DNA of 64,000 nt from Paenibacillus sp. FSL M7-0420 (GTDB taxonomy: Bacteria; Bacillota; Bacilli; Paenibacillales; Paenibacillaceae): NCBI RefSeq assembly GCF_038002345.1, contig NZ_JBBOCJ010000001.1:1550001-1614000 (forward strand), read 5' to 3'. The position numbers and the translations under genes are program-made. The notes below the pieces were generated by a model that was not told the DNA's origin, made no database searches, and saw only the letters and a list, made by a program, of their open reading frames with translations. Shown here piece after piece: positions 23,101 to 64,000 of this stretch. How positions within the stretch are numbered: the stretch's first letter is position 1; each line of letters begins with the position of its first letter.

Positions 23101-23400
23101 GACCAAATGTATGCGGAAAACCGAACACAATCGGCGCTGCTTAGGTGCATAGACCAAATGTATGCGAAAAACAGCATACAATCGGCGCTGCTGAGGTACA
23201 TGGACCAAATGTATGTGAAAAACAGCATACAATCGGCGCTACTGGGTCACATGGACCAAATGTATGTGAAAAACAGCATACAATGGGCGCTGCTGAGGTA
23301 CATGGACAAAATGTATGTGGAAAACAGCATACAATCGGCGCAACTGAGGCCGCGTGGAGCAAATGTATGTGGAAAACAGCATACAATCGGAGCAATGTGC
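23101..23400. repeat. 51-bp hairpin array A (6 units)
   Basis: Units begin at 23101, 23152, 23203, 23254, 23305 and 23357, a spacing of 51, 51, 51, 51 and 52. Each has arms TGTATGC or TGTATGT and GCATACA around an A-rich loop (GAAAAACA), then a GC-rich linker such as ATCGGCGCTGCTGAGG. The first unit differs: its left arm matches the others but the right arm is CCGAACACA. Several frames on both strands stay open only because 51 is a multiple of three; no frame has coding-like composition. Confidence 0.9.
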
Positions 23401-23483
23401 TGGTGCGAGGGCGAGTGAGGCAGATGTACAAGTACCATCTGTACAAAAGGACGCATCAGCCGTTCTAATCTGCATGGCATAGC

Positions 23484-23514
23484 AAACCGGGCCGTATCTT
23501 CAGATACGGCCCGG
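23484..23514 (-). terminator. Hairpin terminator for the small minus-strand gene
   Basis: CCGGGCCGTATCT (23487-23499) pairs with AGATACGGCCCGG (23502-23514). On the minus strand the stem ends in TTTG, a short T-run. Confidence 0.6.
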
Positions 23515-23531
23515 CCATCTTCCAAGCAGGC

Positions 23532-23690
23532 TTACCGGTGTTCGAACAAATCGATGGTGCCGAGTACAATATGCGCCAGACCAAATCCAAGAATGCCGGT
23601 TGCCGCGATCTTATATCTGCTCCCCAGAAAAGCTGCACTCGAAGCAGTAACTACGGTCCCCAGTACGGCGGGTATCATCCCTTCACGCAT
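23532..23690 (-). CDS. Small hydrophobic protein (uncharacterised)
   Basis: This 52-residue frame reads MREGMIPAVLGTVVTAS at its start and ends IVLGTIDLFEHR. It has two hydrophobic, Gly/Ala-rich segments (residues ~5-22 and ~29-45) separated by SRYK, so a two-helix membrane hairpin is likely. A GAGGGAGTG ribosome binding site lies about 8 bases before the ATG and a hairpin terminator follows the stop. Together these make it a convincing gene despite its size. I recall similar short proteins in Paenibacillus annotated as hypothetical, but cannot assign a function. Confidence 0.65.
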   Translation of the reverse strand: MREGMIPAVLGTVVTASSAAFLGSRYKIAATGILGFGLAHIVLGTIDLFEHR

Positions 23691-23808
23691 TCGAAACACT
23701 CCCTCACGGTAGTTTGAAAGACATTCGTTAGTGTGGGTTAAGGCCCGGACAATTATACTTCGAGTTTATGCCAGCGGCGGCAGGGAAGCGGCTGTCTGTT
23801 ATAAACGG

Positions 23809-24768
23809 TCAATCTGCCACTCCTGCTGTGGTCACCCGGCCGGAAGGGTCTTCGACCTCATGCACATTGTAGAGCACGCGCGCCAGCAGATCCTGGCTGT
23901 AATTGCCGAAATGCTTGCCGTAGATCGTCAAGCCGCGCTTGTTCACCGGTTTGTCGGTGACGGCAATGCGGAAGGTCAGCTCGCTTTTGTAATCCAGCTT
24001 GATGTCGTCAAGGGTAATGTCTGAGATGCGGCAGCCGTCAATGAAGCTGCCCTCCTGATTGATGCGGATCAGCTTCAGCATGCCGTACTGGTTGAGGTGG
24101 GGAGGCCACCAGTCCGGGTTGAAGGTGCCGCGCGCATCGCCGAAGTCACCGGGGCTGGTCCAGAAGCCGATCTCGATGCCGTTCACATAGAAATACAGAT
24201 CCGAGGGATAATTGTCGCTGAACCCGGGAGCCTCGGAGCCGATCTCCATGGAGAACTGGATTTCCCTGAAGGTCTGGTTGGCTTTGAGATAGTTAGGGAT
24301 GCGGTACTCCAGGAAGCCTTCGGCCATCCAGATGATCTCGGAGTCGATCCGCTGGGGATCGGCGAAGTAACGCGGCTCGTCGAAGTCCCCGATAATGCTG
24401 TCCTTGGTGGCCAGTCCGCAGGTGGGAACAGCCTGATAATTACTGTAATGGCCCACCTGAATCTCGACCTCGTACAGATTATCGACATCCTTGCTGCGCA
24501 GATCCACCATCAGCTTATCTTTATTCAGGTAGCAGACCTTCTGAATTCCGTGCTTGCCTACGGCCGTATTAATCTCAATTAAGCCGCTCTCCTCCAGCTT
24601 CTTGATATGCATGGTAATGGCCCCGTTGCTGAGATTCAGCTTCTTGGCAATTTCGTTGAGATTCAGGGCCTGATTGGTCGCCAGCAGCTCAAGAATCTGG
24701 ATGCGGATTTCTGAGCTGAGCGCCTTGAAGATATCAATCCCGCTCATCAGATCTTTAATATAAATCAT
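23809..24768 (-). CDS. ArsR-type winged-helix regulator with C-terminal sensor domain
   Basis: This 319-residue protein has an N-terminal winged helix (IFKALSSEIRIQILELLATN, then LNEIAKKLNLSNGAITMHIKKLEESGLIE) like ArsR repressors. A ~220-residue beta-rich C-terminal domain follows, unlike the short ArsR proteins. It is divergent from an ABC sugar importer and GH43 operon across a 460-base AT-rich region, so it probably controls that operon in response to a sugar. I place the start at 24768 (AAGG upstream); a longer frame runs to 24798. The C-terminal domain, with PRYFADP and FWTSPGDFGDARG, is not one I can name. Confidence 0.8.
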   Translation of the reverse strand: MIYIKDLMSGIDIFKALSSEIRIQILELLATNQALNLNEIAKKLNLSNGAITMHIKKLEESGLIEINTAVGKHGIQKVCYLNKDKLMVDLRSKDVDNLYEVEIQVGHYSNYQAVPTCGLATKDSIIGDFDEPRYFADPQRIDSEIIWMAEGFLEYRIPNYLKANQTFREIQFSMEIGSEAPGFSDNYPSDLYFYVNGIEIGFWTSPGDFGDARGTFNPDWWPPHLNQYGMLKLIRINQEGSFIDGCRISDITLDDIKLDYKSELTFRIAVTDKPVNKRGLTIYGKHFGNYSQDLLARVLYNVHEVEDPSGRVTTAGVAD

Positions 24769-24798
24769 ATTTAGAGTACCTTCTTCCACTGAGGTCAT

Positions 24799-25229
24799 GA
24801 GAATCGAAACTATTTTATAAAATTATAAACTAACCGACCCTAAAAGGAAAGTATTCTGCCTTTATTTGTAGAAACCGATTAAATTTAAGCTAAAAGTAAA
24901 AGTTAAAGGCTGTTTGTTTTATATAATTATGAATACTTAATGCGCGGTTAAGTCAATATTAAATGATTTTTTTCAGTAAAAAGACAATAAATAACGTTTA
25001 GTTTGAATGTATTTAAAAAGATTTAAACTTTTATATTTACACTCCACTTTATATATGCTATTTTATACCTGTAAGCGAATACATTCAATTGAATTTCAAT
25101 TATTTAATTAAAGAGTGAAACATAATGCGTCATGCGGTAGCTTGAACTAACAGAGCCGGTGAGGTTCCCTAGTTCTTCTATATAGATTGTATCAATCGAA
25201 TTGCTCAGCAAATCCTAGGAGGGGTTACA
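24799..25229. promoter_or_regulatory. AT-rich divergent control region with a predicted promoter at 25036-25064
   Basis: The region between the regulator and the binding-protein gene is far more AT-rich than its surroundings. TTTACA (25036-25041), 17 bases, TATTTT (25059-25064) is a good sigma-A match directed at the importer genes. The 12-bp palindrome ATTCAATTGAAT (25085-25096) and repeated TTTAAA/AACTTTTA stretches around 25010-25035 are candidate operators for the divergent ArsR-type regulator. Confidence 0.5.
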
Positions 25230-26627
25230 GTGTTAAAGAAAAAGGGCTGGTTCACACTGCTGTCGTTGGTTCTGATGGTATCGGTTGTACTTACAGGCTG
25301 CGGCGGGAAGAACAATGCATCGTCCGGGGGCAATAGCGGAAGCGAAGCTACGGCGAATGCCGGCAGCAAGGATTCCAAGGAAACCAAGAATCTCACCTTT
25401 ATGTTCCGCGGGGGAACCGATGAGCAGAAGGCCTATGAGGGTGTTGTGAAAAAATATGAAGCCGATCATCCGAACGTCAAGGTTAAGATCGTTGTGACTG
25501 CGGCGGATCAATATGCGACCAAGCTGAAAGCCTCTATTACGGGGAACAGCGTTCCGGACGTTTTCTATTTTGAATCCGGTGACCTGAAGGCTTATGTGAA
25601 CAGCGGCGTGCTGCTGGACCTGACCAGCTATGTGGAGAAGAACCCTAACATTGACTTGAATAACATCTGGAAATATGGCGTGGATCTGTACCGTTACGAC
25701 GGCACCATGGCCGGGCAAGGCAATCTGTACGGGATGCCTAAGGATGTAGGCCCTTTTGCACTCGGCTATAACAAGACCATGTTCGAAGCTGCGGGTATCC
25801 CGCTGCCGGACAAAGACAAACCGTACACCTGGGATGAATTCATCAAAGTCGCTCAGCAGCTGACGATTGACAAGGACGGGGACGGCAAGCTGGATCAATT
25901 CGGCGCAGGCTTCAACGTACAGTGGGCCTTGCCTTCCTTCGTCTGGAGCAACGGGGCGGACTGGCTGGATGCGACCAAGACCAAGGTTACGATTGATGAT
26001 CCGAAATTCATCGAAGCCCTGCAATTTTTCACTGACATGCAGCTTAAATACGGCATTACGCCGTCCACAGAACAAGCACAGACTCTGGATACCTACCAGC
26101 GCTGGATGAAAGGTGAAATGGCCTTCTTCCCTGTAGGTCCGTGGGATATGAGCACTTACGAGAAGCTTCCCTTCGATTATGACCTGATTCCATATCCTGC
26201 CGGCTCCACAGGCAAATCCGCCACATGGACCGGCTCACTCGGCATCGGTGCTTCCGCCAAAACCAAGCATCCCGATGAAGCCGTGGATCTGATCAACTAT
26301 CTGACGGCCTCCAAGGAGGGAATGGAAGCGCTGGTGAAGGCTAAGGTGCAAATTCCGAACCTGATGGATATGGCTAAGGAATGGGCTGCTGATACTACGA
26401 CCAAACCGGCGAACAAGGAAGAATTCCTCCAGGTCGTGAATGAATACGGACGGGTGCTGCCTGGCCACTACACGTACAATGCTGAATGGTATAACCTGTT
26501 CTACACGGACATCCAGCCGGTGCTTGACGGCAAGGTTACCCCGGAGGAATATGTGAAGACGGAACAGCCGAAGATGCAGAAGCTGCTGGATAAAGCGGTT
26601 GAGCAAGAGGCGAAATCCAAGAAATAA
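25230..26627 (+). CDS. ABC transporter sugar-binding lipoprotein
   Basis: This 465-residue extracellular solute-binding protein (family 1, MalE-like) has a lipoprotein signal ending in VVLTGCGGK, followed by a Ser/Gly/Asn-rich linker. The start is GTG with a strong AGGAGGGG ribosome binding site. A family-1 signature region is visible in [20 protein letters not shown]. It delivers a sugar to the two permeases encoded next. No ATPase gene is present, so a shared ATPase such as MsmX is likely. The downstream GH43 gene and nearby GH127 gene suggest arabino-oligosaccharides as ligand, which is an inference from neighbours only. Confidence 0.93.
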
Positions 26628-26657
26628 GCGGTACACATCGTTCTTATCCAGCATACC

Positions 26658-26700
26658 AAGTGATGTCCGGTCTCCTGTAACAGCGGGCCGGCATCACTTT
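26658..26700 (+). terminator. Intercistronic hairpin between binding protein and permease genes
   Basis: AAGTGATG (26658-26665) and CCGG (26667-26670) pair with CCGG (26688-26691) and CATCACTT (26692-26699). The stem is followed by TTGTTG rather than a long T-run, so partial termination or 3'-end protection of the binding-protein mRNA is likely. Confidence 0.6.
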
Positions 26701-26733
26701 GTTGCTGGACCATCCGAATTTGAGGTGATTCTA

Positions 26734-27624
26734 ATGAACACTAAGCTGGGTCTGTACCGCAAGGAGAAAATCTACGGGTTTCTGTTTATCCTGCCTCCGC
26801 TGCTGGGACTGCTGATCTTTACGCTGTACCCGATGATTTATTCGATCTATGGCTCATTCACGGATTGGGATGGTCTCGGCCAGATGAACTTCATCGGCCT
26901 CGGCAACTTCAAGGATCTGTGGTCGGATGAGCTGTTCCATAAGGCCTTATTCAATACCTTGTTCATGATGCTTGGCATTCCGATCGGCATTACGCTGGCG
27001 CTGCTGCTGGCGCTTGGGCTGAACCGGGGGGTGCCCGGGACTACAGCGTTCCGGGTCATCTATTATGTTCCGGTCATTTCTTCTCTGGCCGCAGTATCGA
27101 TCATGTGGAACTGGGCCTATAACGGTGATTATGGTCTCGTCAACCAGTTCCTTGATCTCTTCGGAATCAGCGGGCCGAACTGGATGGCGAATAAATATAC
27201 GGTCAAGCCGGCGCTGATCATTATGGCGGTATGGAAGGGCCTCGGTTATACGATGCTGCTCTATCTGGCGGCGCTGCAGAGTGTCTCCAGATCTTATTAT
27301 GAAGCGGCGGAGCTGGACGGAGCCAGCGGCTTCAAGTCCTTTTGGCATATCACCTGGCCGATGGTGCGCCCGGTAACCTTTTTCATCATCGTGACCAACA
27401 TTATTGGAGGATCGCAAATTTTTACCGAGATGAACATTATGACCCCTACAGGCGGGCCTGAATATGCTTCAGCCTCCGTGGTGTTCTACATTTGGCAAAA
27501 GGCCTTCGGCAACTTCCAGATGGGCTATGCCTCTGCTATGGCGGTATTCCTCGGCGTGTTCATATTTGTTGTGACTCTTATCCAATTCCGAATGAACGAG
27601 AAGCAATCGTTCGATGTCGATTAA
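26734..27624 (+). CDS. ABC sugar transporter permease (MalF/UgpA type)
   Basis: This 296-residue membrane protein has six predicted helices and the EAA loop YYEAAELDGASGFKSFWHIT, which contacts the ATPase. The frame extends upstream to 26599, but that part overlaps the binding-protein gene and the intercistronic hairpin. The ATG at 26734 has GAGGTG at the right distance. It pairs with the following permease to form the importer channel. Confidence 0.94.
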   Translation: MNTKLGLYRKEKIYGFLFILPPLLGLLIFTLYPMIYSIYGSFTDWDGLGQMNFIGLGNFKDLWSDELFHKALFNTLFMMLGIPIGITLALLLALGLNRGVPGTTAFRVIYYVPVISSLAAVSIMWNWAYNGDYGLVNQFLDLFGISGPNWMANKYTVKPALIIMAVWKGLGYTMLLYLAALQSVSRSYYEAAELDGASGFKSFWHITWPMVRPVTFFIIVTNIIGGSQIFTEMNIMTPTGGPEYASASVVFYIWQKAFGNFQMGYASAMAVFLGVFIFVVTLIQFRMNEKQSFDVD

Positions 27625-27648
27625 CTGAAGAGGGAGGAGACCATAAAT

Positions 27649-28485
27649 ATGACGAGCAGAAGAAGAGTTACCCATAGCATTATCTTTGTTCTACTTTTAA
27701 TCGGCGCGGTGTTCATGATCGGCCCGCTGCTCTGGATGCTGTCCACCTCATTCAAGGATAAGCAGGATGTGTTCGCCTTGCCTCCGGTGTGGATTCCGCG
27801 GCCGTTCCATTTCGATAAATACAGTGAGATCTGGACGGCGGGTCCGCTGCTAAGCGGGATCAGGAACAGCTTGATCATCGCGGTGACGGTGACGATTGTA
27901 GGTACGTTCACCTCCAGCCTTGCGGCGTTTTCCTTTGCTAAATTGCGGTTTCCGGGTAAAAATAAAATATTCCTGCTGATGCTGTCATCCCTGATGATTC
28001 CGTATCCGGCAGTCATGATTCCGCAGTTCTTCATGTTCTCGAAGCTGGGCTGGATTGATACGCTGCTGCCGCTGATCGTGCCGGGCCTGTTCGGCAATAT
28101 CGTCATGATCTTCTTCCTGCGGCAGTATCTGAGCAGTGTGCCCAATGCCATTATCGAAGCGGCCAAAATCGACGGAAGTTCGTACTTCCGCCTGTACAGC
28201 TCGATCACCTTCCCGCTGATCAAGCCGGCGGTGGCAGCGCAGCTGATCCTGTGGTTCATGGGTATCTGGAACGACTACCTGTCTCCGATTATCTATCTGA
28301 ATTCACCGGAGAAGCAGACGCTCCAGCTGGTTATCGCCAACTTCAATGCGACCTATGCGATCCAGACGGACTATCCGCTGATTATGGCGGCTTCGATTAT
28401 TGCCCTGCTGCCGATGCTGATTATCTTCCTTGTATTCCAAAAGCAAATCATTGAATCTGTTGCCATCTCCGGAGTGAAGGGCTGA
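27649..28485 (+). CDS. ABC sugar transporter permease (MalG type)
   Basis: This 278-residue membrane protein has six helices and the EAA loop IIEAAKIDGSSYFRLYSSI, the partner of the preceding permease. An AGGGAGGAG ribosome binding site lies before the ATG. It ends in the typical ESVAISGVKG tail of carbohydrate uptake family 1 permeases. The GH43 gene starts 73 bases later, with no terminator between, so it is probably in the same transcript. Confidence 0.94.
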   Translation: MTSRRRVTHSIIFVLLLIGAVFMIGPLLWMLSTSFKDKQDVFALPPVWIPRPFHFDKYSEIWTAGPLLSGIRNSLIIAVTVTIVGTFTSSLAAFSFAKLRFPGKNKIFLLMLSSLMIPYPAVMIPQFFMFSKLGWIDTLLPLIVPGLFGNIVMIFFLRQYLSSVPNAIIEAAKIDGSSYFRLYSSITFPLIKPAVAAQLILWFMGIWNDYLSPIIYLNSPEKQTLQLVIANFNATYAIQTDYPLIMAASIIALLPMLIIFLVFQKQIIESVAISGVKG

Positions 28486-28558
28486 CCCTTCCTTCGGAAT
28501 ACCGAATTACCGGCTGAGCACCGCCAGCCACCAGTTCAAGGCCAAAGGAGAAACCATA

Positions 28559-29521
28559 ATGAATACAAATAGAGAGTACACTAACCCGCTTGTCGAACAG
28601 CGTGCAGATCCCTGGGTATACAAGCATACCGACGGTTATTACTATTTCACCGCTTCCGTGCCGGAATATGACCGGATTGAAGTACGCAGAGCGTTAACGA
28701 TTGAGGGGCTTCGGGAAGCACAGCCGGTAGTCGCCTGGCGCAAATATGAGAGCGGCCCGCTCAGCGCCAATATCTGGGCACCCGAAATCCATTATATTGA
28801 TAGCAAATGGTATATTTACTTCGCGGCGGCCCGCACCACGGAGACGAAGGAAGGGCTGTTCGACCACCGGATGTACGCCCTGGAGAATACTTCAGCGAAC
28901 CCGCTGGAAGGAGAGTGGACCGAGAAGGGGCAGGTGAGAACCGCCTGGGAATCCTTCGCCCTGGACGCTACGGTGTTCGAGCATAAGGGCGTGCATTACT
29001 ATGTATGGGCGCAAAAGGACCCCGAGATTGACGGCAACTCCAATCTGTATATCTCAGCCATGGAGAACGGCTGGACGCTCAAGGGTCCGCAGACAATGAT
29101 CTCTTCGCCGGAGTATCCTTGGGAGGTCATCGGCTTCAAGGTAAACGAGGGGGCTGCCGTGCTGAAGCGGGGCGGCCGGATCTTCGTGAGCTTCTCGGCC
29201 AGCGCCACCGATCACAACTATTGTATGGGGCTGCTCACTGCATCGGAGGACAGCGATCTGCTGGACGCCTCATCCTGGGCCAAGCATCCCGAACCGGTGT
29301 TCCAGACCAGTGAGGAGAACGGGCAGTACGGCCCGGGACATAACAGCTTTACGGTGGACGAGCACGGCGGGGATGTTCTGATCTACCATGCCCGCAGCTA
29401 TAAGGAGATCACCGGAGACCCGCTCTACGACCCGAACCGCCACACCCGTGCGCAGCACCTGCGCTGGAACGCGGACGGCACGCCGGATTTCGGCGTGCCT
29501 GTGAGGGATGGCGCGAAGTAG
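28559..29521 (+). CDS. Glycoside hydrolase family 43 (probable alpha-L-arabinofuranosidase)
   Basis: This 320-residue five-bladed beta-propeller enzyme has the GH43 triad: Asp17 in EQRADPWVY (base), Asp136 in FALDATVFEH (pKa modulator) and Glu197 in FKVNEGAAVL (acid). No signal peptide is visible, so it acts in the cytosol on sugars imported by the transporter encoded just upstream. The sequence resembles intracellular exo-arabinofuranosidases rather than endo-arabinanases, but GH43 also includes beta-xylosidases. An AAGGAG ribosome binding site precedes the ATG. A terminator follows about 100 bases after the stop. Confidence 0.9.
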   Translation: MNTNREYTNPLVEQRADPWVYKHTDGYYYFTASVPEYDRIEVRRALTIEGLREAQPVVAWRKYESGPLSANIWAPEIHYIDSKWYIYFAAARTTETKEGLFDHRMYALENTSANPLEGEWTEKGQVRTAWESFALDATVFEHKGVHYYVWAQKDPEIDGNSNLYISAMENGWTLKGPQTMISSPEYPWEVIGFKVNEGAAVLKRGGRIFVSFSASATDHNYCMGLLTASEDSDLLDASSWAKHPEPVFQTSEENGQYGPGHNSFTVDEHGGDVLIYHARSYKEITGDPLYDPNRHTRAQHLRWNADGTPDFGVPVRDGAK

Positions 29522-29623
29522 GGCAGAGTTCAGTCGGGAAGAGAGTGGGGTAGCACGCAGAACTGCGGAGTTCCGTTGAAGGCCGCTCCGAGGGTTGGCT
29601 ACCGGCTGCATAGAGTGAAATGC

Positions 29624-29664
29624 AAAGAGTCCCGCAACCCTTTGGAGGGGAGCGGGACTCTTTG
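29624..29664 (+). terminator. Intrinsic terminator after the GH43 operon
   Basis: AAAGAGTCCCGC (29624-29635) pairs with GCGGGACTCTTT (29652-29663). It also has an A-run on its 5' side, so it could serve both strands. Confidence 0.8.
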
Positions 29665-29714
29665 TGCTGAGCCTCTGAATTAGCCAATGGTCTGGTGGCA
29701 GAGCGCCCTGGTAC

Positions 29715-30002
29715 GGCAGCTGCCGTTGCATTTTATGCAGGATTTCCGCACAGGCCGCTCTTATTGGGCTACATTGTTGCATTTTATGCAGGATTTTTCT
29801 GAATTTGTTGCTGTCTGTGGCACATTGTTGCACTTTATGCAGGAATTCCAGCAGTTTGGTGCTGATTTAAGTTGTAATGTTGCATTGTGTGCAGGATTTC
29901 CGCACGGGCCGCTCTTATTGGGCTACATTGTTGCATTTAGTGCAGGATTTTCTCATAGGCCGGTTCTATTGAGCCGCATTGTTGTATTCCGTGCAGGATT
30001 GT
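29715..30002. repeat. 51-bp hairpin array B (6 units)
   Basis: The motif GTTGCA or GTTGTA, then a short loop and TGCAGGATT, recurs at 29725, 29776, 29827, 29879, 29930 and 29981 (spacing 51, 51, 52, 51, 51). Stems are short (TGCAT with ATGCA, loop TTT), and the loop and arms vary. Linkers such as TCCGCACAGGCCGCTCTTAT recur in alternate units. It lies between the GH43 terminator and the convergent anti-sigma gene. Read on the minus strand it is the same family as array E at 63.4 kb. Confidence 0.88.
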
Positions 30003-38130: not shown

Positions 38131-38570
38131 GGACCGAATGTATGCGGAAAACCGATTACATTGCGCCGGGTGGTGGTGTGCGGGCGTAATGTAATCGAAA
38201 AACCGATCACATTACGCCGGGCGGTGGTGTGCGGGCGTAATGTAATCGAAAAACCGATTACATTGCGCCGGGTGGTGGCGTGCGGGCCGAATGTAATCGA
38301 AAAACCGATTACATTACGCTGGGTGGTGGCGTGCGGTCCGAATGTAATCGAAAAACCGACTACATTGCGCCGGGTGGTGGCGTGCGGTCCGAATGTAATC
38401 GAAAAACCGATCACATTGCGCCGGGTGGTGGTGTGCGGGCGCAATGTAATCGAAAAACCGATTACATTGCGCCGGGTGGTGGTGTGCGGGCCGAATGTAA
38501 TCGAAAAACCGATTACATTGCGCTGGGTGCTTTGCGGTCCGCAATGTAATCGAAAAACCGATTACATGAC
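38131..38570. repeat. 51-bp hairpin array C (9 units)
   Basis: Unit stems begin at 38137, 38188, 38239, 38290, 38341, 38392, 38443, 38494 and 38543 (seven intervals of 51, last 49). Most are near-perfect hairpins with 10-bp arms AATGTAATCG and CGATTACATT around loop AAAAAC. The linker is GC-rich (GCGCCGGGTGGTGGTGTGCG). The first unit has the array-A left arm (TGTATGCGG) joined to the array-C right arm. Stem changes are single transitions that leave a G-U pair on one strand. It lies between convergent genes. Confidence 0.93.
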
Positions 38571-50607: not shown

Positions 50608-51996
50608 ATGAATTACGGACATATTACAGTGCCGCAGGCAGAGGTGCCGGTCTCCTGCGAGGTGGATGTGCTGGTTATCGGCGGCGGGGCGGCAGGGATT
50701 GCCGCCGCGATCTCCGCTGCCGAAGGCGGAGCAAGCACCATGATCGTGGAGCAGCGCGGGTATCTGGGCGGAATGGGCACCGTGGCGCTGGTGCCTGCCT
50801 TCTGTCCCTATACGGACAAGGTTAAGCCGATTATCCGCGGCCTCGGCCTGAAGCTGATGGAGCGGATGAAGCAGGCTTGTGATCCGGGCTATCAGGAGGA
50901 ATACCGCGAGCAGCTGGACTGGGTGCCGATTGATCCTGAAGTGTTGAAGCGCGTCTATGACAGCGCTGTGCTGGAGAGCGGTGTGACGCCGCTGTTTCAC
51001 ACCTTTGTCTACGATGTGGTGCGGTCGCCGGACGGCCAGACGATAGAGGGTGTAATGATTGTCAACAAATCCGGGAGGTCCTTCATCCGCTGCCGTTATA
51101 TCATCGACTGCACCGGCGACGGCGACATTGCTGCCCTGTCGGGCGTGCCTTTCCAGAAGGGCGGCGATGACGGAGAGCTTCAGCCGGGCAGCATGTGTTA
51201 TCTGCTGGCGAATGTTGACCGGCCAAGCTTCAGCCGCTTCCTTGAGGAGACCGGAGATACAGGTCAATTGCACCGGACCGTGGAGCAGGCCATCCTGGAG
51301 GGAGCTCTGCCGGAAGGCCGCAAATCCATCTCAGGCCTGGCCTGGGTGAGCGATCAGCTGGTCGGCGTGAACTTCGGCCATGTGTTCGGGGTGGACGGAA
51401 CGAAGGCCGAGGACCTGACACGGGGAGCCATTGAAGGCCGCCGGACGGTGCTGCGGCAGCTGGAATTCTTCCGGAAGTATGTGCCCGGCTTCGAACAGGC
51501 GCATCTGGTGGCAAGCGGAGAGCAGCTTGGCATTCGGGAGACGCGGCGTATCCAGGGCGATTATACGCTGACTGTGGATGACTTCGTGGCCGCGCGTTCT
51601 TTCCCTGACGATATCGCCCGTAATGCCTACTACATTGACATCCATCTGGCGACCAGCAAAAGTGATATGACCTTCAATCATCTGCCGCCGGGCGTCTCCC
51701 ACGGGGTGCCTTACCGGGTGATGCTTCCGGTGGGCATCCGCAATCTGTGGGTAGCGGGACGTTCCGTGTCTTCGGACCGGGCGGTGCAAGGCTCGCTGCG
51801 CGTCATGCCGAACTGCTTCTCGATGGGCCAGGCCTGCGGGACGGCAGCAACGCTTGCGCTCCGGGACGGCACAGACTCCCGCAGCATTTCGATTCCTGAG
51901 CTGCAGCAGCGCCTGCTGGAGCAGGACGTGTGGCTCGGGGAGAATTTCGCTTCCGGGGCAGCGGCTCAGGATGCGGAAGCGGGGCAGGCGCAGTGA
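50608..51996 (+). CDS. FAD-dependent oxidoreductase, second copy
   Basis: This 462-residue flavoprotein of the same family as that at 44166 has the dinucleotide motif VLVIGGGAAGIAAAISAAEGG, acidic MIVEQRGYLGGMG and a C-terminal SMGQACGTAATLA. An AGGAGG ribosome binding site precedes the ATG. It lies in the importer operon of module 1 and overlaps the SGNH hydrolase gene by 4 bases. Sequence similarity between the two FAD proteins is limited to the family core, so they probably differ in substrate. Confidence 0.9.
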   Translation: MNYGHITVPQAEVPVSCEVDVLVIGGGAAGIAAAISAAEGGASTMIVEQRGYLGGMGTVALVPAFCPYTDKVKPIIRGLGLKLMERMKQACDPGYQEEYREQLDWVPIDPEVLKRVYDSAVLESGVTPLFHTFVYDVVRSPDGQTIEGVMIVNKSGRSFIRCRYIIDCTGDGDIAALSGVPFQKGGDDGELQPGSMCYLLANVDRPSFSRFLEETGDTGQLHRTVEQAILEGALPEGRKSISGLAWVSDQLVGVNFGHVFGVDGTKAEDLTRGAIEGRRTVLRQLEFFRKYVPGFEQAHLVASGEQLGIRETRRIQGDYTLTVDDFVAARSFPDDIARNAYYIDIHLATSKSDMTFNHLPPGVSHGVPYRVMLPVGIRNLWVAGRSVSSDRAVQGSLRVMPNCFSMGQACGTAATLALRDGTDSRSISIPELQQRLLEQDVWLGENFASGAAAQDAEAGQAQ

Positions 51997-53282
51997 GCAG
52001 TGCGAAGGACTTGAAGAGCGAGAAGAACGGGAAGAGTGTGAAGAGCGTGAAGAGCGGGAAGAGTGTGGAGAACGTGAAGAGCGCGGAGAGTGAGAAGAGC
52101 GTGAAGATCGCGGAGAGCGTGAAGAGCGTGGAGAGCGTGAAGAGCGCGGAGAGTGTGAAGAGCGCGGAGAGTGTGAAGAGCGCGGAGAGTGTGAAGAGCG
52201 TGAAGAGCGCGGAGAGTGTGAAGAGCGTGAAGAGCATGAAGAGCGTGAAGAACGTGGAAAACGAGAAGAGTGTGAAGAATGTGAGGAGCCTTCCTTTGCA
52301 GGAGGCGTGGTTTCACGGGGCGGTCTCGCTGGAGCACCGGCAGGAGGGCATCAAGCCCTGGCGGATTCCCTTCCGGGACTACGACTTGTATCCGCCGGAT
52401 GGGATCGGCGGCAAGGCGGAGATCTGCTCCGGTATCCGGCTGCGGCTGGCATCCGGCTCGGAGACCCTCCTCCTCTGGTTTGAGCCGCTGGCTGAGGACG
52501 CTTCGCTGGATTGTGTGGCTGACGGCCGGCTGGTGCAGACGCTCCGGCTTGCTGCGGGAGCTGCGGACGCCCGCTTCACCCGGCTTCCCCCAGGTATGAA
52601 GGAACTGGATATCTATCTGCCGCAGAACACCGGTATGACTATCAGCGGTCTTGCGATTGATGATGACGCTGTTGCTGAACCGCTGGCGGACCTGAGGCCG
52701 CGCTGGGTGACGTATGGAAGCTCGATTACCCAGTGCGTGGCAGCTTCTAGCCCGTCGCGCACCTGGCCGGTGATCGCCGCCGGGGAAATCGGCTATCACT
52801 TGACCAATCTCGGCTTCTCCGGCAACTGCCTGATGGAGCCGATGATAGGCCGGCTAATCCGGGATCTGCCGGCTGACCTGATTACCCTGTGCGTTGGCGT
52901 GAACATCTATGGCGCAGCGTCCTCCAACCCGCGGATGTTCAAGCCGCTGCTGATCGGTCTGCTGGAGACCATCCGGGAGAAGCATACAGAGACCCCGTTG
53001 GTGGTCATCTCGCCTATCTACGGAACGGAGCGGGAGACGGAGGAGAATCCGCTCGGCTTCACCCTGCCGCTGATGCGCGGGGAGATCGCGGAGACGGTGA
53101 AGCTGCTGCAGGCGCGGGGAGACCGCCATCTGCATTACCTGGATGGTCTGAAGTGGTTTGGTCCGGCGGACGGAGAGCTGCTGACCGATGGCCTGCACCC
53201 CGGCCCCGAAGGCTATGAGCTGCTGGGCAGCCGCTTCGGAAGCAGGCTGGCGGCTGCGCTCCGGGGCGAAACGCTGGATTAG
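51993..53282 (+). CDS. SGNH/GDSL hydrolase with a 9-bp-repeat-encoded N-terminal extension
   Basis: The C-terminal ~330 residues are an SGNH esterase with an N-terminal beta-sandwich, similar in plan to SsfX3-like enzymes. Visible are block I VTYGSSITQC (Ser244), block II GFSGNC, block III CVGVNIYG and block V DGLHPGPEGYELL. It probably removes acyl groups from sugars. From the GTG at 51993, which overlaps the previous stop, residues ~5-98 are repeats of VKS, AES and VES. An alternative start is TTG 52296 with GAGGAG (52283-52288) seven bases upstream, which would leave the repeat outside the protein. The unbroken 9-bp phase over the whole repeat favours translation, but this is not settled. 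Confidence 0.75.
   Translation: MSSAKDLKSEKNGKSVKSVKSGKSVENVKSAESEKSVKIAESVKSVESVKSAESVKSAESVKSAESVKSVKSAESVKSVKSMKSVKNVENEKSVKNVRSLPLQEAWFHGAVSLEHRQEGIKPWRIPFRDYDLYPPDGIGGKAEICSGIRLRLASGSETLLLWFEPLAEDASLDCVADGRLVQTLRLAAGAADARFTRLPPGMKELDIYLPQNTGMTISGLAIDDDAVAEPLADLRPRWVTYGSSITQCVAASSPSRTWPVIAAGEIGYHLTNLGFSGNCLMEPMIGRLIRDLPADLITLCVGVNIYGAASSNPRMFKPLLIGLLETIREKHTETPLVVISPIYGTERETEENPLGFTLPLMRGEIAETVKLLQARGDRHLHYLDGLKWFGPADGELLTDGLHPGPEGYELLGSRFGSRLAAALRGETLD
52011..52291 (+). repeat. 9-bp minisatellite (GTGAAGAGC / GCGGAGAGT)
   Basis: About 30 tandem 9-bp units, purine-rich on the plus strand, encode Val-Lys-Ser, Ala-Glu-Ser and variants. The units have diverged by substitution, but no unit breaks the 9-bp phase. 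The opposite strand is also open (Leu/Phe/Thr-rich), as expected for any 9-bp repeat without stops, and is not evidence of a gene. Confidence 0.92.
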
Positions 53283-54998: not shown

Positions 54999-55236
54999 GG
55001 CCGAATGTGGTCGGAAAACCGACTACATTCGGTGCGGCAGAGATGTGTGAGCCAGATATGGTCGAAAAACCGACTACATTCGGTGCGACAGAGATGTGTG
55101 AGCCAGATATGGTCGAAAAACCGACTACATTCGGTGCGGCAGAGATGTGTGAGCTGGATATGGTCGGAAAACCGACCACATTCGGTGCGGCGGAGGTGTG
55201 AGGGCGGGATGTAGTCGAAAAACCGATCACAATGGG
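54999..55236. repeat. 51-bp hairpin array D (5 units)
   Basis: Units start at 55004, 55055, 55106, 55157 and 55208, exactly 51 apart. Arms are TGGTCG or TAGTCG with CGACTACA or CGACCACA around an AAAA or AAAAAC loop. The linker is TTCGGTGCGGCAGAGATGTG. The loop is shared with array C while the stem bases differ on both sides. It lies between a terminator and the promoter of the next kinase gene. Confidence 0.92.
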
Positions 55237-57177: not shown

Positions 57178-57180
57178 AGG

Positions 57181-58812: not shown

Positions 58813-58984
58813 AAATCAGCAGGGGAGGAATTTCCGCGGGGCGGAGATGACCTCCCTTAACTCTATCTAACTCCTGCAGAAACCTGCCCTTAATGTGGGC
58901 TTACCCGCCTTATCCGTTGTGTCCAATCGATCTATAATCAGGTTGTAAGTGAATACAGCAGGGATATATAAGGGGGAACTACCA

Positions 58985-60373
58985 ATGATGAAGCGTACGC
59001 TAATAACATCTCTGAGCCTGGTCCTGGCACTTGGCCTGACAGCCTGCGGCAACGGCAACGGTAACGGCGGCAACGCAGTTGAAGGCAAGGGAGAAGGGGC
59101 GAAGGCTGGTTCGGGAGAAAAAACTAAAATCAGCTATTGGACAGGCGACCGCCACGATGCCGATTTTATAAAGGAGAAGGTAGCCGAGTTCAACGCATCC
59201 AATAAGGATGGGATTGAAGTAGAGCTTGTCGTCAAGGGCGATGACTTTGATACCGCGCTCGATCTGTCCTTCCAGACCTCCGATGCGCCGGATGTGATCC
59301 GGGTGAAGGAGAATACCATCCAGACCTTTTACAAAAAAGGCTTTCTCGCTCCCATTGACGAGTTCCTCACCGATGAGGTGAAGACGAAATTCCCGGCTAT
59401 GCCGGATTTGAATGAATTTGACGGCAAGCGTTACAGCCTGCCTAACTTCGGAACGACCATGCGTCTGGTATACAACAAGGATCTGTTCGCCAAAGCAGGC
59501 ATTGAGCATCCGCCGACCACTCTGCAGGAGCTGGTGGATACAGCCAAGAAACTGACAGCAGCCGGCAAGGCGGATGGTGCTTACGGCTTCGCCCTGAACT
59601 TCAAGAACCCCGGCAGTGCGTTCGCACGTTCGGCGCGGGTGGTTGCAGAGATGAGCGGCTATGGCGGCTTCGGGTATGATTTCAAAACGGCCCGCTACGA
59701 CTTCAGCGGCTTCGAGCCGATCATCAATGCCTTTAAGCAGATCAAGGACGACGGCAGTATGCTGCCGGGTGTAGAATCGCTGGATATTGACCCGCTGCGG
59801 GCGCAGTTTGCAGAAGGCAAGATCGGAATGTACATGTCCTACTCCTCGGAGCCGGGCGTCTACAAGAATCAGTTCCCGGCCAAGATTGACTGGGCGGCCG
59901 CTCCGGTTCCGACCATCGACGGCAATGTGAAGGGGGCTTCCGGCTTCCTCGGGGGCCAATGGCTGGCGCTCAGCTCGAAATCAGAGCACAAAGAAGCAGC
60001 CTGGAAGTTCATGGAGTTCATGTACGGCGATCAGGTGCTGACGGATTATCAGGAAAAAGGCTTCGGCATCTCCATGGTTCCATCCATCAGCGCAGCCGCC
60101 AAGACACCGGATGTGAACGGCATTGAAGGCTTCCTGCCGAACAAGCACGATGGAGTGTGGCCGGTCTATCCGTCTGTAGCCCCGGAAGGAATGAAATCGG
60201 ATGACGCCTTCTTCAAATATATGCTGAACGGCGGCGACCTGAAGGCGATTATCGCTGATCTGAACAAACGCTATAATGCTGCACTGGACAGCGTGATTGC
60301 GAATGACGGCGTGAAGGCCGAGCCGGATGCCGGCTTTGATCCCGCCGCGCTGGGCGGCAAGTTCGCCAAGTAG
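58985..60373 (+). CDS. ABC transporter sugar-binding lipoprotein, module 2
   Basis: This 462-residue family 1 binding protein has a lipoprotein signal ending LALGLTACGNG, then a Gly/Asn-rich linker. It is a close paralogue of the module 1 protein at 47274. AAGGGGG precedes the ATG pair at 58985/58988. Its position after a YesM/YesN-type pair and before two permeases repeats the module 1 order exactly. The ligand is probably a mannose-containing oligosaccharide, judging only by the GH130 neighbours. Confidence 0.93.
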   Translation: MMKRTLITSLSLVLALGLTACGNGNGNGGNAVEGKGEGAKAGSGEKTKISYWTGDRHDADFIKEKVAEFNASNKDGIEVELVVKGDDFDTALDLSFQTSDAPDVIRVKENTIQTFYKKGFLAPIDEFLTDEVKTKFPAMPDLNEFDGKRYSLPNFGTTMRLVYNKDLFAKAGIEHPPTTLQELVDTAKKLTAAGKADGAYGFALNFKNPGSAFARSARVVAEMSGYGGFGYDFKTARYDFSGFEPIINAFKQIKDDGSMLPGVESLDIDPLRAQFAEGKIGMYMSYSSEPGVYKNQFPAKIDWAAAPVPTIDGNVKGASGFLGGQWLALSSKSEHKEAAWKFMEFMYGDQVLTDYQEKGFGISMVPSISAAAKTPDVNGIEGFLPNKHDGVWPVYPSVAPEGMKSDDAFFKYMLNGGDLKAIIADLNKRYNAALDSVIANDGVKAEPDAGFDPAALGGKFAK

Positions 60374-60397
60374 ATCGAAGGTTAGGGATAGAGATAC

Positions 60398-60452
60398 AGG
60401 CCGGGATAGCGGGGGATGAGGGAGCAACTCTCTCATCCCTCTGCTCTGGCCG
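60398..60452 (+). terminator. Intercistronic hairpin after the module 2 binding-protein gene
   Basis: GGGATGAGGGAG (60413-60424) pairs with CTCTCTCATCCC (60428-60439), enclosed by outer GGCC (60399-60402) and GGCC (60448-60451). No T-run follows, so mRNA protection or attenuation is more likely than full termination. Confidence 0.6.
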
Positions 60453-60479
60453 TAAGGGAGAGGAGCCGGAAGAAACCAG

Positions 60480-61382
60480 ATGAACAAAACAAAACATGCC
60501 TTATTTTCATATAGCTTTATCTTTCCAAGTGCCTTGCTCACTGTGGTCCTTGGAATTTACCCGATTGCCTGGGCGTTCCGCTATATGTTCTATGATTACA
60601 AAGGGTTCGGAACGGCCCGGTTTACCGGTCTGGCTAATTTCAGCCGCATTCTGAAGGACACCCAGTTCTGGGATTCGGTGGTGAACACATTTGTCTATGC
60701 AGGCGGCAAGCTGCTGATCACCATTCCGCTGGCCCTGCTGCTGGCAGCGATATTAAACCGGGGGCTGCGGGGCAGACAGCTGCTGCGGGGGATTTTCTTC
60801 ATGCCGACCGTTATCAGTACAGCCGTAATGGCCGTAGTCTTCTTCACGATTTTCAACTCGTATAACGGAATTCTCAACCAGTTCCTGATCCGCTTGGGCC
60901 TCACAGATTCCGGCGTGGACTGGCTGGGGCCGAAATATGCCATGCTCACCGTCATTCTGGTTGCGGCCTGGGGCGCGGTCGGCAATTATATGCTGCTCTT
61001 CCTCGCCGGTCTGCAGAATATTCCCGAGGATGTGTATGAGGCCTCTTCCCTGGACGGGGCAGGGAAAATTCAGCAGTTCCGCTATGTCACCCTGCCGATG
61101 CTCGGGCCTGTCATGCAGATGGTTATTATGCTGGCGATCATTACAGCTCTGAAGGGTTACGAGAGCATCATGGTTCTGACCGAAGGAGGTCCTGTAGGCA
61201 AGACGGAGGTCATGTTCCTGTATTTATACAAATTATTCTTCCCTGTCGGCGGGGGCAGCGCGGGTGTTCAGGTCCAGGAGTTCGGATACGGCAGTGCGGT
61301 CGCCTTTGTGTCTGCGGTCATTGTAGGGATGATATCACTCATTTATTTCTACGCATCCAGACGCATGAATCAGACCGATTGA
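60480..61382 (+). CDS. ABC sugar transporter permease (MalF/UgpA type), module 2
   Basis: This 300-residue protein has six helices and the EAA loop VYEASSLDGAGKIQQFRYVT. The LLRGIFFMPTVISTAVMAV stretch matches the module 1 permease. A GAGAGGAG ribosome binding site lies upstream. Its stop is followed within 15 bases by the start of the second permease. Confidence 0.94.
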   Translation: MNKTKHALFSYSFIFPSALLTVVLGIYPIAWAFRYMFYDYKGFGTARFTGLANFSRILKDTQFWDSVVNTFVYAGGKLLITIPLALLLAAILNRGLRGRQLLRGIFFMPTVISTAVMAVVFFTIFNSYNGILNQFLIRLGLTDSGVDWLGPKYAMLTVILVAAWGAVGNYMLLFLAGLQNIPEDVYEASSLDGAGKIQQFRYVTLPMLGPVMQMVIMLAIITALKGYESIMVLTEGGPVGKTEVMFLYLYKLFFPVGGGSAGVQVQEFGYGSAVAFVSAVIVGMISLIYFYASRRMNQTD

Positions 61383-61396
61383 GGAGAGAGGCTATT

Positions 61397-62233
61397 ATGA
61401 GACTAAGAACCATACTGGGCAAAACAATCCTGTGGACTTTTTTGCTGTCATTTGCTTTTATCACCCTGATTCCTGTTGTGATCACTATTCTCGGCTCCTT
61501 CAAGACGAATGCCGAGCTGACTGCGGGAGCAACCTTCCTGCCGGATAGCTGGCACTTCTCGAACTATGCCGAAGCCTGGTCGCAGGCGAATTTCTCCAGA
61601 TATACGCTGAACAGTCTGCTGGTGTCTCTGGCGGCAGTGGTAGGCACGCTGCTGGTCTCCTCCATGGCGGCTTATGTGGTGGACCGGATGGATTTTGCCG
61701 GCAAAAAATTGTATATCGGACTGCAGTCCTTCACCATGTTCGTGGCTGTAGGGGCGGTTGTGCTGCGTCCGCAGTTCGATCTGATGGTTAAGCTTCATCT
61801 GCATAGCAGCCTGTGGGGGGTTATATTGATTCTGATCTCTGCCCATGCTTCGATCTTCTTCATTCTGTTCAGCTTCATGAAGGGAATTCCCCGCGAGCTG
61901 GACGAGGCGGCGCTGATAGACGGCTGCTCCCCCGGCCGGACCTTCTGGCGGATTATTCTGCCGCTGCTCGGACCCGGTCTGGGCGTAGGCGCCCTGTTCA
62001 CCTTCCGCGGCGCGTGGAATGAATATCTGCTACCGCTCGTGTTCACGATGACGAAGCCGGAGCTGCAGACGCTAACCGTCGGGCTGGCGAACCTGAAATA
62101 CGGGATTTCGGCCGCTTCCCAGACCCACTATATGATGGCGGGAGCTTGCTTATCCATTCTGCCGATTCTCGTCGCCTACCTGTTTGCGAACAAATCCTTC
62201 ATGCAGATGACGGCCGGTTCCCTGAAGGGGTAA
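61397..62233 (+). CDS. ABC sugar transporter permease (MalG type), module 2
   Basis: This 278-residue protein has six helices and the EAA loop ELDEAALIDGCSPGRTFWRII, ending SFMQMTAGSLKG. The ATG at 61397 has GAGGAGAGAGG upstream; an in-frame TTG at 61379 overlaps the preceding gene and is less likely. It lacks the N-terminal extension of the module 1 counterpart. GH130 copy 2 follows after 75 bases. Confidence 0.94.
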   Translation: MRLRTILGKTILWTFLLSFAFITLIPVVITILGSFKTNAELTAGATFLPDSWHFSNYAEAWSQANFSRYTLNSLLVSLAAVVGTLLVSSMAAYVVDRMDFAGKKLYIGLQSFTMFVAVGAVVLRPQFDLMVKLHLHSSLWGVILILISAHASIFFILFSFMKGIPRELDEAALIDGCSPGRTFWRIILPLLGPGLGVGALFTFRGAWNEYLLPLVFTMTKPELQTLTVGLANLKYGISAASQTHYMMAGACLSILPILVAYLFANKSFMQMTAGSLKG

Positions 62234-62251
62234 CTGTCCGGCCTTACACAT

Positions 62252-62294
62252 AACACTCAACATTCAACACACAACATTCAACATTCAATATTCA
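62252..62294 (+). repeat. Short AACATTCAA-type repeats before GH130 copy 2
   Basis: Variants of the 9-bp word AACATTCAA occur five times in 43 bases, with almost no G, directly before the AAGGAGGT ribosome binding site. The unstructured, G-free leader should leave the ribosome binding site highly accessible. Confidence 0.6.
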
Positions 62295-62308
62295 AGGAGG
62301 TACACCCC

Positions 62309-63316
62309 ATGACTCAACACGTTTCGGCGATTCTGCAATCCGCCCCTTTCATCCGGCGGTATCACGGCAATCCGGTGCTGGATGCAGCGAAGGTTCCTTA
62401 CCCCACCGCACTGGTATTCAATGCCGGTGTAACGAAATTTAACGGCAAATATGTGATGATCTTCCGCAACGATTACGGCTCACTGGACGATCAGACGCTG
62501 GAGCCGCACCACACTACGGATCTCGGCATTGCTTACAGTGACGACGGTCTGAGCTGGACCGCCGGCCCGAAGCCGGTGTTCAAAATGCATGACGAGGAAA
62601 TTATCCGCGCCTATGATCCGCGCCTGACCGTGCTCGGCGGCCGCTGTTTCATGTGTTTTGCCGTGGATACGCGCCATGGCATCCGCGGCGGCATTGCCGT
62701 TACCGATGATCTGGAACACTTCGAGGTGCTCAGCCTGTCTACACCGGACCTGCGCAATATGGTACTGTTCCCCGAGACCATCGGCGGCAAGTATGTCCGG
62801 CTGGAGCGTCCCTTTACGGTGTACAGCCGCGGCGGCCGGGACCGCTTCGATGCCTGGATCTCCGAGTCGCCGGACCTTGTGCATTGGGGCAACTCCAGCC
62901 TGCTGCTCGCTGTCGAGCAGGTGCCGTTTGCTAATGATAAGGTCGGTCCGGCTGCACCTCCGGTCCGGACAGACAAGGGCTGGCTGACCACCTTCCATGC
63001 GGTGGATGTGGACCCGGCCAGAGGCAAGCACGGCTGGGAGGACACCTGGAAGAAGCGCTATACCGCCGGAATTATGCTGCTGGATCTGGAGGACCCCCGC
63101 AAGGTGATCGGCATGAGCAGGCAGCCGCTGCTGGCACCGGAGACAGATTATGAGATTGGCGGGGGCTTCCGCAATCATGTGATTTTTCCCGGCGGGATGA
63201 TTCTGGAGGATGACGGCGAGGTCAAAATCTATTACGGCTCTGCGGATACGGTAGAATGCCTGGCCACGGCCCATGTGGACGATCTGCTCCGGCTCTGTCT
63301 GGAGTCAGGGGAATAA
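62309..63316 (+). CDS. GH130 glycoside phosphorylase/hydrolase, copy 2
   Basis: This 335-residue propeller is a close paralogue of the enzyme at 53825, with Asp103 in AYDPRLTVL, VDTRHGIRGG, RPFTVYSRGGRDRFD, GWLTTFHAVD and YYGSADTVECLATA. It is the last gene of the module 2 importer operon and has a near-perfect AAGGAGGT ribosome binding site. Two enzymes this alike at the two ends of one module suggest a recent duplication with possible specialisation. Array E starts about 75 bases after the stop. Confidence 0.88.
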   Translation: MTQHVSAILQSAPFIRRYHGNPVLDAAKVPYPTALVFNAGVTKFNGKYVMIFRNDYGSLDDQTLEPHHTTDLGIAYSDDGLSWTAGPKPVFKMHDEEIIRAYDPRLTVLGGRCFMCFAVDTRHGIRGGIAVTDDLEHFEVLSLSTPDLRNMVLFPETIGGKYVRLERPFTVYSRGGRDRFDAWISESPDLVHWGNSSLLLAVEQVPFANDKVGPAAPPVRTDKGWLTTFHAVDVDPARGKHGWEDTWKKRYTAGIMLLDLEDPRKVIGMSRQPLLAPETDYEIGGGFRNHVIFPGGMILEDDGEVKIYYGSADTVECLATAHVDDLLRLCLESGE

Positions 63317-63389
63317 ATAAGATGGCAGCTAGCTGAAGGCTGAAAGGTGGAACAACATTGGGGCCATCTGCCATGATTGGAGCGGCGTG

Positions 63390-63727
63390 CGCGGAGATTG
63401 TGCATGAAGTGCAACAATCCAGCTCCATAGGAGCCGCCAGCGCGGAAATCCTGCACAAAATGCAACAATGTAGTTCAATAGGAGCGGCCATAAGGAGATT
63501 GTGCATGAAGTGCAACAATTTAGCTACATAGGAGCCGCCAGCGCAGGAATCCTGCACAAATAGCAACAATCCAGCTCCATAGGAGCGGTCAGCGCGGAAA
63601 TCCTGCACAAATTGCAACAATACAGCTCAAATTAGCACCGGTTCGCCGAAATTCCTGCAAAAGTTGCAACAATAACTCCACAGCCAGTAACCAATTTAGA
63701 TAAATCCTGCAAAAGGTGCAACAATGC
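63390..63727. repeat. 51-bp hairpin array E (7 units)
   Basis: GCAACAAT marks the units at 63411, 63462, 63512, 63563, 63614, 63666 and 63718 (spacing 50-52). The stem is CCTGCA or TGTGCA with TGCAAC around CAAAA-type loops. Linkers carry CAGCTCCATAGGAGC and GCCAGCGCGGAAAT. Reverse-complemented, array B has the same hairpin and linker words (AATAAGAGCGGCC against AATAGGAGCGGCC). Confidence 0.9.
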
Positions 63728-63749
63728 CGGAGACAACCGGCACCGTAAG

Positions 63750-64000
63750 CGGGCTGAGGTGTATAAATACACCAGATCCAGCCGGAAGCAGGCGCAGAGC
63801 GGGAATGAGGTGTATAAATGCACCAGATTCAGCCGAAAGCAGGCGCAGGGCGGAAATGAGGTGTATAAATACACCAGATTCAGCCGGAAGCAGGCGAAGG
63901 GCGGAAATGAGGTGTATAAATACACCAGATTCAGCCGAAAGCGGGCGCAGGGCAGAAATCAGGTGTATAAATGCACCAGATCCAGCCGGAAGCGGGCGAA
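63750..64000. repeat. 51-bp hairpin array F (at least 5 units, continues past the window)
   Basis: GAGGTGTATAAA units start at 63756, 63807, 63858 and 63909, and AGGTGTATAAA at 63961, all in 51-bp register. The stem is GGTGTAT with ATACACC (loop AA), or GGTGTAT with A-GCACC (one G-T pair). The linker is CAGATTCAGCCGAAAGCAGG. The first hairpin centre lies 51-52 bp after the last hairpin centre of array E. Confidence 0.92.

What the first reader, a model, noticed from the sequence alone, without database searches (positions are those of the whole stretch)
23101..64000. Seven stem-loop arrays with different stems share one 51-bp period
About 42 hairpin units in seven intergenic arrays (A 23.1, B 29.7, C 38.1, G 53.4, D 55.0, E 63.4, F 63.75 kb) repeat at 51 bp in nearly every interval I could count. 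The few exceptions are 49, 50, 52 and one 62. Yet the stems fall into several unrelated sequence families (TGTATGC, TGTAATCG, TGGTCG, TGCAT/TGCA, GGTGTAT, TTGTA). Slippage alone would conserve period within an array, not across families. A shared constraint is suggested: a protein that measures about five helical turns, an RNA that must place hairpins regularly, or one copying mechanism. I know of no described element with these properties.
Basis: seen in the sequence. Interest (0 to 1): 0.9.

Follow-up and report, generated by a model that had tools for sequence, protein, structure and literature searches.

The report
Replication-oriented 51-bp hairpin satellite arrays
Short hairpin-forming DNA repeats with a fixed 51-letter period are scattered through this Paenibacillus chromosome; the fixed length was already in print, but nearly all the arrays examined face the same way relative to DNA replication, which points to the replication fork as the place where they are made or used.

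Summary
Tandem arrays of hairpin units with a 51-bp period lie at A, B, C, D, E and F; G is a degenerate one. In a 10% systematic sample of the genome 51 bp is by far the commonest tandem period.

Three corrections. [quoted passage not shown] (2) The stems are not all unrelated: A, C and D are one family; B is E's family on the other strand; F aligns in register with A/C/D. Only E/B could not be linked. (3) 51-52 bp also occurs in other Paenibacillus species and in four Bacilli genomes of other families.

Not found in print: the units are hairpins (15 of 26 published Bacillus consensus repeats tested carry a significant palindrome), and arrays are locked to replication. The strand with the A-rich loop is the leading-strand sequence in 51 of 53 arrays examined here, including 18 of 18 between convergent genes, and likewise in three other species. 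Best reading: a fork-coupled hairpin satellite; the cause of the fixed length stays inferred.

The parts
23098..23390 (+). Array A: about 5.7 units of 51 bp, core TGTATG(T/C)GAAAAACAGCATACA, in a convergent gap; A-rich loop on +
29725..30000 (-). Array B: about 5.4 units, reverse strand reads TCCTGCATAAAATGCAACAAT; same family as E, opposite strand; an exception to the replication lock
38134..38567 (+). Array C: 8.5 units, core TGTAATCGAAAAACCGATTACA, in a convergent gap; one of many arrays of this family in the genome
53380..53590 (.). Array G: degenerate array, best lag 51 at 0.675 identity, a few weak palindromes
55008..55226 (+). Array D: 4.3 units, core TGGTCGAAAAACCGACTACA, same family as A and C
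63389..63674 (+). Array E: about 5 units, core TCCTGCACAAAATGCAACAAT, two unit types alternating (101-bp super-period)
63755..64000 (+). Array F: 4.8 units seen, core GGTGTATAAATACACC, runs off the window end

Best explanation
These are dispersed hairpin satellites of the 51-53-bp class. Each unit of the A/C/D family is an imperfect palindrome (22-bp core, extended by short matching ends) followed by a variable spacer. A few copies seed a gap between genes and expand head to tail. Shown: period, hairpin, in-array homogeneity, genome-wide dispersal, avoidance of promoter gaps, turnover between species at the one gap compared, and an orientation tied to replication with the A-rich loop on the leading-strand sequence (also the lagging-strand template). 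Inferred: arrays are made, spread or kept in single-stranded DNA at the replication fork, where the hairpins form; tandem duplication then passes the unit length on, so one period persists while stems and spacers drift. A remaining constraint near five helical turns, from a bound protein or from hairpin spacing, keeps the length at 51-52.
For: Orientation: 51 of 53 own-genome arrays with 3 or more units have the A-rich strand as leading-strand sequence; 18 of 18 in convergent gaps; 6 of 7 where both flanking genes run against replication (origin from dnaA at 7.28 Mb; GC skew). The 53 are the arrays in the loci fetched, the samples and the window, not a census. Other species: 46 of 49 arrays in P. 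piscarius and P. silagei lie on the strand with positive flanking GC skew; in G039 15 of 15 clusters of two or more exact GGGATAAATCCC units follow the skew (one cluster has one unit of four turned round). Turnover: in the gap of array C, of 8 relatives fetched one has the same family cut by an insertion sequence, one has an array with a different stem, one has a remnant and five have none. Spacers are homologous between arrays (0.57 against 0.29 when shifted), so length can be inherited. Only 1 of 50 placed arrays lies in a divergent gap, against 59 of 249 gaps.
Against: A simple slippage model wants the more stable hairpin on the nascent lagging strand. Predicted DNA folding of whole units goes the other way: the nascent-lagging complement is more stable in only 10 of 53 arrays; ordinary intergenic DNA leans the same way (58 of 188), so part of this is composition. 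E/B is locked less tightly: 39 clusters with and 8 against, counted by eye from the 100 of 190 places listed; array B is one of the 8. In G039 both single exact matches face the other way. Single units could not be judged: of three single core matches in 844 kb, all in the lead direction, one is split off an array by an insertion sequence and one has a second, weaker unit. No enzyme was identified. A two-step cause (random spread, then selection on orientation) would leave the same pattern.
Confidence: 0.45

Rival explanations
1. Oriented binding arrays: a chromosome-organising or segregation protein binds the palindromes with about five turns between them, and selection keeps them pointing along the replichore, as for translocase guide motifs.
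For: Strand lock in several species; modal length 51-53 in 46 of 46 countable arrays while neighbouring units differ at about 7 of 51 positions; published guess of a polymerising nucleoid protein (PMC8161180).
Against: Array C's position is not kept between species; only 12 of 61 genus genomes, the own one included, carry many copies of the A/C/D core; stems change freely; no protein found.
Confidence: 0.28
2. RNA elements: arrays are 3' UTR or small-RNA hairpins that stabilise or regulate transcripts.
For: Both strands of a 256-base piece of array C fold better than shuffles (z -4.2 and -7.3); arrays follow gene ends; stems show paired changes; 52-nt repeats of B. coagulans are transcribed according to PMC8161180.
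Against: Arrays follow replication, not transcription: in 6 of 7 gaps where both genes run head-on the array is antisense to both. Mismatches favour G.T on the strand antisense to most upstream genes (161 A.C against 76 G.T on the A-rich strand). Turnover.
Confidence: 0.12
3. REP/BIME-like elements moved by a Y1 (IS200/IS605 or RAYT) transposase, whose single-strand target choice gives the strand lock.
For: Palindromic, intergenic and multicopy; strand bias; one IS605-like TnpA stands next to an array; four of six array-rich genomes searched do hold Y1 matches.
Against: The other two array-rich genomes (G053, G051) have no Y1 match, while two of six array-poor ones (G002, G010) do; the own genome has one intact copy beside a TnpB-like ORF and one broken copy.
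Confidence: 0.05
4. Passive drift: plain tandem duplication of one old repeat with no constraint beyond descent; orientation reflects leading-strand purine bias alone.
For: In-register similarity of F-type and A/C/D units; array DNA is purine-rich on the leading strand (mean 0.605 over 22 arrays against 0.525 for other intergenic DNA).
Against: Composition drift cannot turn round a conserved core in 51 of 53 arrays; E/B shows no demonstrable homology yet shares the period.
Confidence: 0.1

Closest known systems
51-53-nt constant-size tandem repeats of Bacillus and Paenibacillus (Subirana and Messeguer, PMC8161180)
   Same: Period 51-53, several sequence families per genome, few repeats per array, only partly conserved between strains, stated to be particularly abundant in Paenibacillus
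   Different: That text reports no sequence conservation (beyond short signals per species) and does not use the words palindrome, hairpin, orientation or leading strand; here hairpins, shared skeletons and replication orientation are shown
REP/BIME elements of enterobacteria (features recalled)
   Same: Intergenic palindromes in clusters, often between convergent genes, also hit by insertion sequences
   Different: Fixed 51-bp period, and no Y1/RAYT transposase needed
BOX elements of Streptococcus (features recalled)
   Same: Repeated hairpin modules in intergenic DNA
   Different: No boxA/boxC-type end modules seen: in 35 arrays flank identity to the array consensus falls towards background beyond about 8 bp upstream and 6 bp downstream of the end cores
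CRISPR arrays
   Same: Palindromic core and spacer of near-constant length
   Different: Spacers repeat within an array instead of being unique

Membership tests
51-53-nt constant-size tandem repeats | Period 51-53 nt dominating the genome's tandem repeats | tested here: met
   16 of 45 arrays in 800 kb have period 51 and one has 52; no other period exceeds 5
51-53-nt constant-size tandem repeats | Several sequence families of the same length, non-coding | tested here: met
51-53-nt constant-size tandem repeats | Only partly conserved between related genomes | tested here: met
   Gap C in 8 relatives, species not strains; one gap only
51-53-nt constant-size tandem repeats | Transcribed (reported for B. 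coagulans) | not testable with these tools
   No RNA data held
REP/BIME | Associated Y1/RAYT transposase | tested here: not met
   Two of six array-rich genomes lack any PF01797 match; the own copy is IS605-like
REP/BIME | Palindromic, intergenic, multicopy | tested here: met
CRISPR | Unique spacers | tested here: not met
   88-91% matches over the whole unit within arrays A, C, D and F
CRISPR | cas genes nearby | not tested
   No cas search was run
Rfam RNA families | Match to a curated model at gathering score | tested here: not met
   Only a guanidine-I riboswitch at 921-1032 in the window

The most novel reading that the evidence does not exclude
Across Bacillales an unrecognised replication-coupled process or oriented chromosome-organising system makes or uses hairpin satellites with a period of about five DNA turns, and sets both their length and their direction relative to the fork, whatever the stem sequence.
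Probability: 0.3. Interest if true: 0.8.

Novelty: new member of a known kind. Interest (0 to 1): 0.55.

Why it matters
The published 51-53-nt repeats had no established function or mechanism. A replication-strand lock, shown here in several Paenibacillus species, turns a curiosity of length into a testable link with the replication fork or chromosome layout, and says which experiments to do first.

Tried and rejected
Orientation-dependent slippage with the stabler hairpin on the nascent lagging strand: predicted folding energies go the other way (10 of 53). RAYT/IS605 mobilisation: no Y1 transposase match in two array-rich genomes. A second conserved hairpin in the spacer: only weak pairing, best diagonal 0.25-0.82 per outer pair. 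G.T against A.C mismatch asymmetry as proof of a functional RNA strand: 161 against 76 pooled over 333 units, but per array only 22 against 15 with 10 ties, so not decisive. Homology of E/B to the other families: not shown; the best shift is not register 0. first made this comparison with one E unit put among the F-type units by a slip in my script; one search repeats it with the groups right (40 A/C/D, 12 F-type, 3 E/B units) and its numbers are the ones given. nhmmer with F-type seeds in other species: weak outside near relatives. In the four non-Paenibacillus genomes the palindromes are too symmetric to assign direction by the loop motif; both strands matched, so no lock was scored there. 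No covariance model was built.

Own-genome orientation was counted twice; 46 of 49, replichore borders 3.8 and 7.4 Mb, four arrays overlapping predicted ORFs left out; 51 of 53, those four kept, origin moved to dnaA (7.281 Mb) and terminus set at 3.78 Mb, within the GC-skew change between about 3.67 and 3.84 Mb. If array L002 (3.799 Mb) is put on the other side, becomes 50 of 53.
Full report
WHAT IS THERE. The window holds six clear tandem arrays of 51-bp units (A, B, C, D, E, F) and a degenerate one (G). A lag scan from 20 to 200 bp shows, besides 51 and its multiples, a 31-bp GC-rich repeat at 38.6 kb and a repeat in a predicted gene at 52 kb. The shuffled window peaks at 0.46 identity.

GENOME SCALE. 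The window is G000:C1:1550001-1614000 of a 7.67-Mb genome. Forty evenly placed 20-kb stretches (800 kb; one lies inside the window) gave 45 non-overlapping tandem arrays, 16 of period 51. With a lag scan of 844 kb, 18 of 33 arrays scored as non-coding have period 51, one 52, one 101 and two 103; some of the other periods are, by their sequence, repeats in genes that my simple gene caller missed. Spacing between intergenic hairpins, ignoring sequence, peaks at 51: 26 intervals, the next values (52, 102) 3 each. The core pattern TGTANNNGAAAAACNNNNTACA with up to 2 mismatches occurs 802 times, against 20 for the reversed control.

FAMILIES. A, C and D belong to one family. Between 40 array consensuses the 22-bp core is 0.88 identical and the 29-bp spacer 0.57, against 0.29 when shifted, so spacers are homologous. 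These 40 are the arrays, of 47 found, with at least three units usable at 51-bp spacing. B is the family of E on the other strand. F-type units (12 seeds; a thirteenth was not retrieved) align with A/C/D without gaps best at register 0 of 51 circular shifts: 0.416 against 0.261, sd 0.043; array F's own unit 0.483; spacer columns alone 0.354 against 0.244, sd 0.044, where a wrong shift reaches 0.344. E/B (3 units) does not align best at register 0. One array (L073, 8.3-8.7 kb, minus strand) carries units with different stems at about 51-bp spacing. The array in L067 keeps the 51-bp period although its units read GTGTATAAATCCC, no longer a clean palindrome.

HAIRPINS. In 333 units of the A/C/D family three stem pairs (core columns counted from 0) show changes on both sides: pair 4-17 has A-T 190, T-A 56, G-C 25; pair 5-16 has T-A 267, G-C 40; pair 3-18 has A-T 214, G-C 10. 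Against this, 161 A.C, 76 G.T and 82 other mismatches occur on the A-rich strand. Array edges show identity to the array consensus falling towards background beyond about 8 bp before the first core and 6 bp after the last, from 35 arrays.

REPLICATION LOCK. Origin: dnaA lies at 7.281 Mb. GC skew is positive in the stretches from 0.04 to 3.65 Mb (one of -0.02 at 2.89 Mb), negative from 3.84 to 7.26 Mb and positive at 7.45 Mb. The arrays scored are those with three or more units in the window, in the sample stretches and in loci; this is not a census, and 48 of the 53 are of the A/C/D family. Of the 53, 51 have the A-rich strand as leading-strand sequence (p = 3e-13). To separate this from gene direction: all 18 arrays between convergent genes, and 6 of 7 where both genes run head-on, follow replication (24 of 25, p = 1.5e-6). 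The exceptions are L022 (5.67 Mb) and L024 (7.56 Mb); L002 (3.80 Mb) sits near the terminus border. An earlier count with other borders and four arrays fewer gave 46 of 49. The E/B family is biased less: 39 clusters with and 8 against, counted by eye from the 100 of 190 places listed.

OTHER SPECIES. The A/C/D core is expanded well above its control in 12 of 61 genomes of the genus, the own one included. In samples of five other species, 51-bp arrays with other stems turn up once in G014 (400 kb) and once in G039 (200 kb), and in none of G028, G043 or G016 (200 kb each); by pattern, G028 does carry arrays of the A/C/D core at 51-bp spacing. In P. piscarius and P. silagei (named; G059 taken as P. 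silagei from equal contig lengths) 46 of 49 arrays lie on the strand with positive flanking GC skew, a proxy that also follows gene direction. In G039 all 15 clusters of two or more exact GGGATAAATCCC units follow the skew, one of them with one unit of four turned round, while two single matches do not. A hairpin taken from published Bacillus repeats was found in 4 of 398 Bacilli genomes, all four of other families. In 14 stretches chosen around those places the tandem periods include 51 (6), 52 (4), 53 (1) and doubles of these (6), beside 21 (3) and single others.

POSITION AND TURNOVER. Arrays avoid divergent gaps (1 of 50 placed arrays against 59 of 249 gaps of at least 150 bp, p = 1.4e-4) and favour convergent ones (18 of 50 against 33 of 249, p = 3e-4). 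In the gap of array C (beside an aldo/keto reductase gene), 16 genomes were searched with that gene, 15 matched, and I fetched 8 of them, about 1.3 kb each. G042 has the same family interrupted by a transposase gene, G011 has a 51-bp array with another stem, G009 a remnant by my reading, and five have none in the stretch fetched; the gene on the far side of the gap differs between several of them. In the own genome the same insertion-sequence end also splits an array in L086.

LITERATURE. PMC8161180 (whole text read in five parts) reports 4029 tandem repeats in 176 Bacillus genomes, 1886 of them 51-53 nt, with constant size and variable sequence, and says they are particularly abundant in Paenibacillus, citing J Bacteriol 2020 e00229-20, which is not held. 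It proposes a protein that polymerises on DNA, or small RNAs. A word search of its main text found no palindrome, hairpin, orientation or leading strand. Of PMC8625621 I saw passages only. Searches, judged by titles and abstract beginnings, showed no report of the hairpin unit or the strand lock, but most subscription papers are not in that library, the 2020 paper among them. Of 26 consensus repeats copied from the 27 in Table 1 of PMC8161180, 15 carry a palindrome that exceeds shuffles at p < 0.05 (about one expected; not corrected for the relatedness of some of them); 11 do not.

MECHANISM. Shown: homogeneous tandem units, homologous spacers, dispersal, turnover at one gap and orientation tied to replication. 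Inferred: formation, spread or retention in single-stranded DNA at the fork, with length inherited by tandem duplication. The simple slippage version predicts the stabler hairpin on the nascent lagging strand; folding energies do not show this in 43 of 53 arrays, nor in 130 of 188 ordinary intergenic gaps, so the exact step is open. An oriented protein-binding array kept by selection is the main rival. A Y1 transposase is not required. The period near five helical turns is compatible with a bound protein, but nothing here tests that.

VERDICT. Real and striking, but a member of a published class. The hairpin unit and the replication lock are what this work adds.

Noticed in passing
L086:1077-2584; L276:879-960: The same insertion-sequence end (IS3-like by recall of the transposase; no family search) sits inside array spacers in the own genome and in G042, so arrays seem to be insertion targets.
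   Followed up: partly
L109:975-2958: An IS605-like pair of ORFs (Y1 TnpA by Pfam model; TnpB-like by recall) lies directly beside a short 51-bp array.
   Followed up: partly
window:38596-38665: A 31-bp GC-rich tandem repeat directly follows array C.
   Followed up: no
window:52012-52289: An 18/27-bp repeat inside the predicted gene 51993-53282.
   Followed up: no
window:921-1032: Guanidine-I riboswitch (Rfam, 85.7 bits).
   Followed up: no
window:53825-54832 and 62309-63316: Two GH130 family genes about 8.5 kb apart, each followed by a 51-bp array of a different family (D and E).
   Followed up: no
L068:6820-7540: A 51-bp array lies between inverted copies of a longer repeat, as if carried in a larger repeated element.
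   Followed up: no
first units of many A/C/D-family arrays: The first unit is often a diverged variant (TGTATGCGGAAAACCGAACACA type) resembling the core common in G028.
   Followed up: partly
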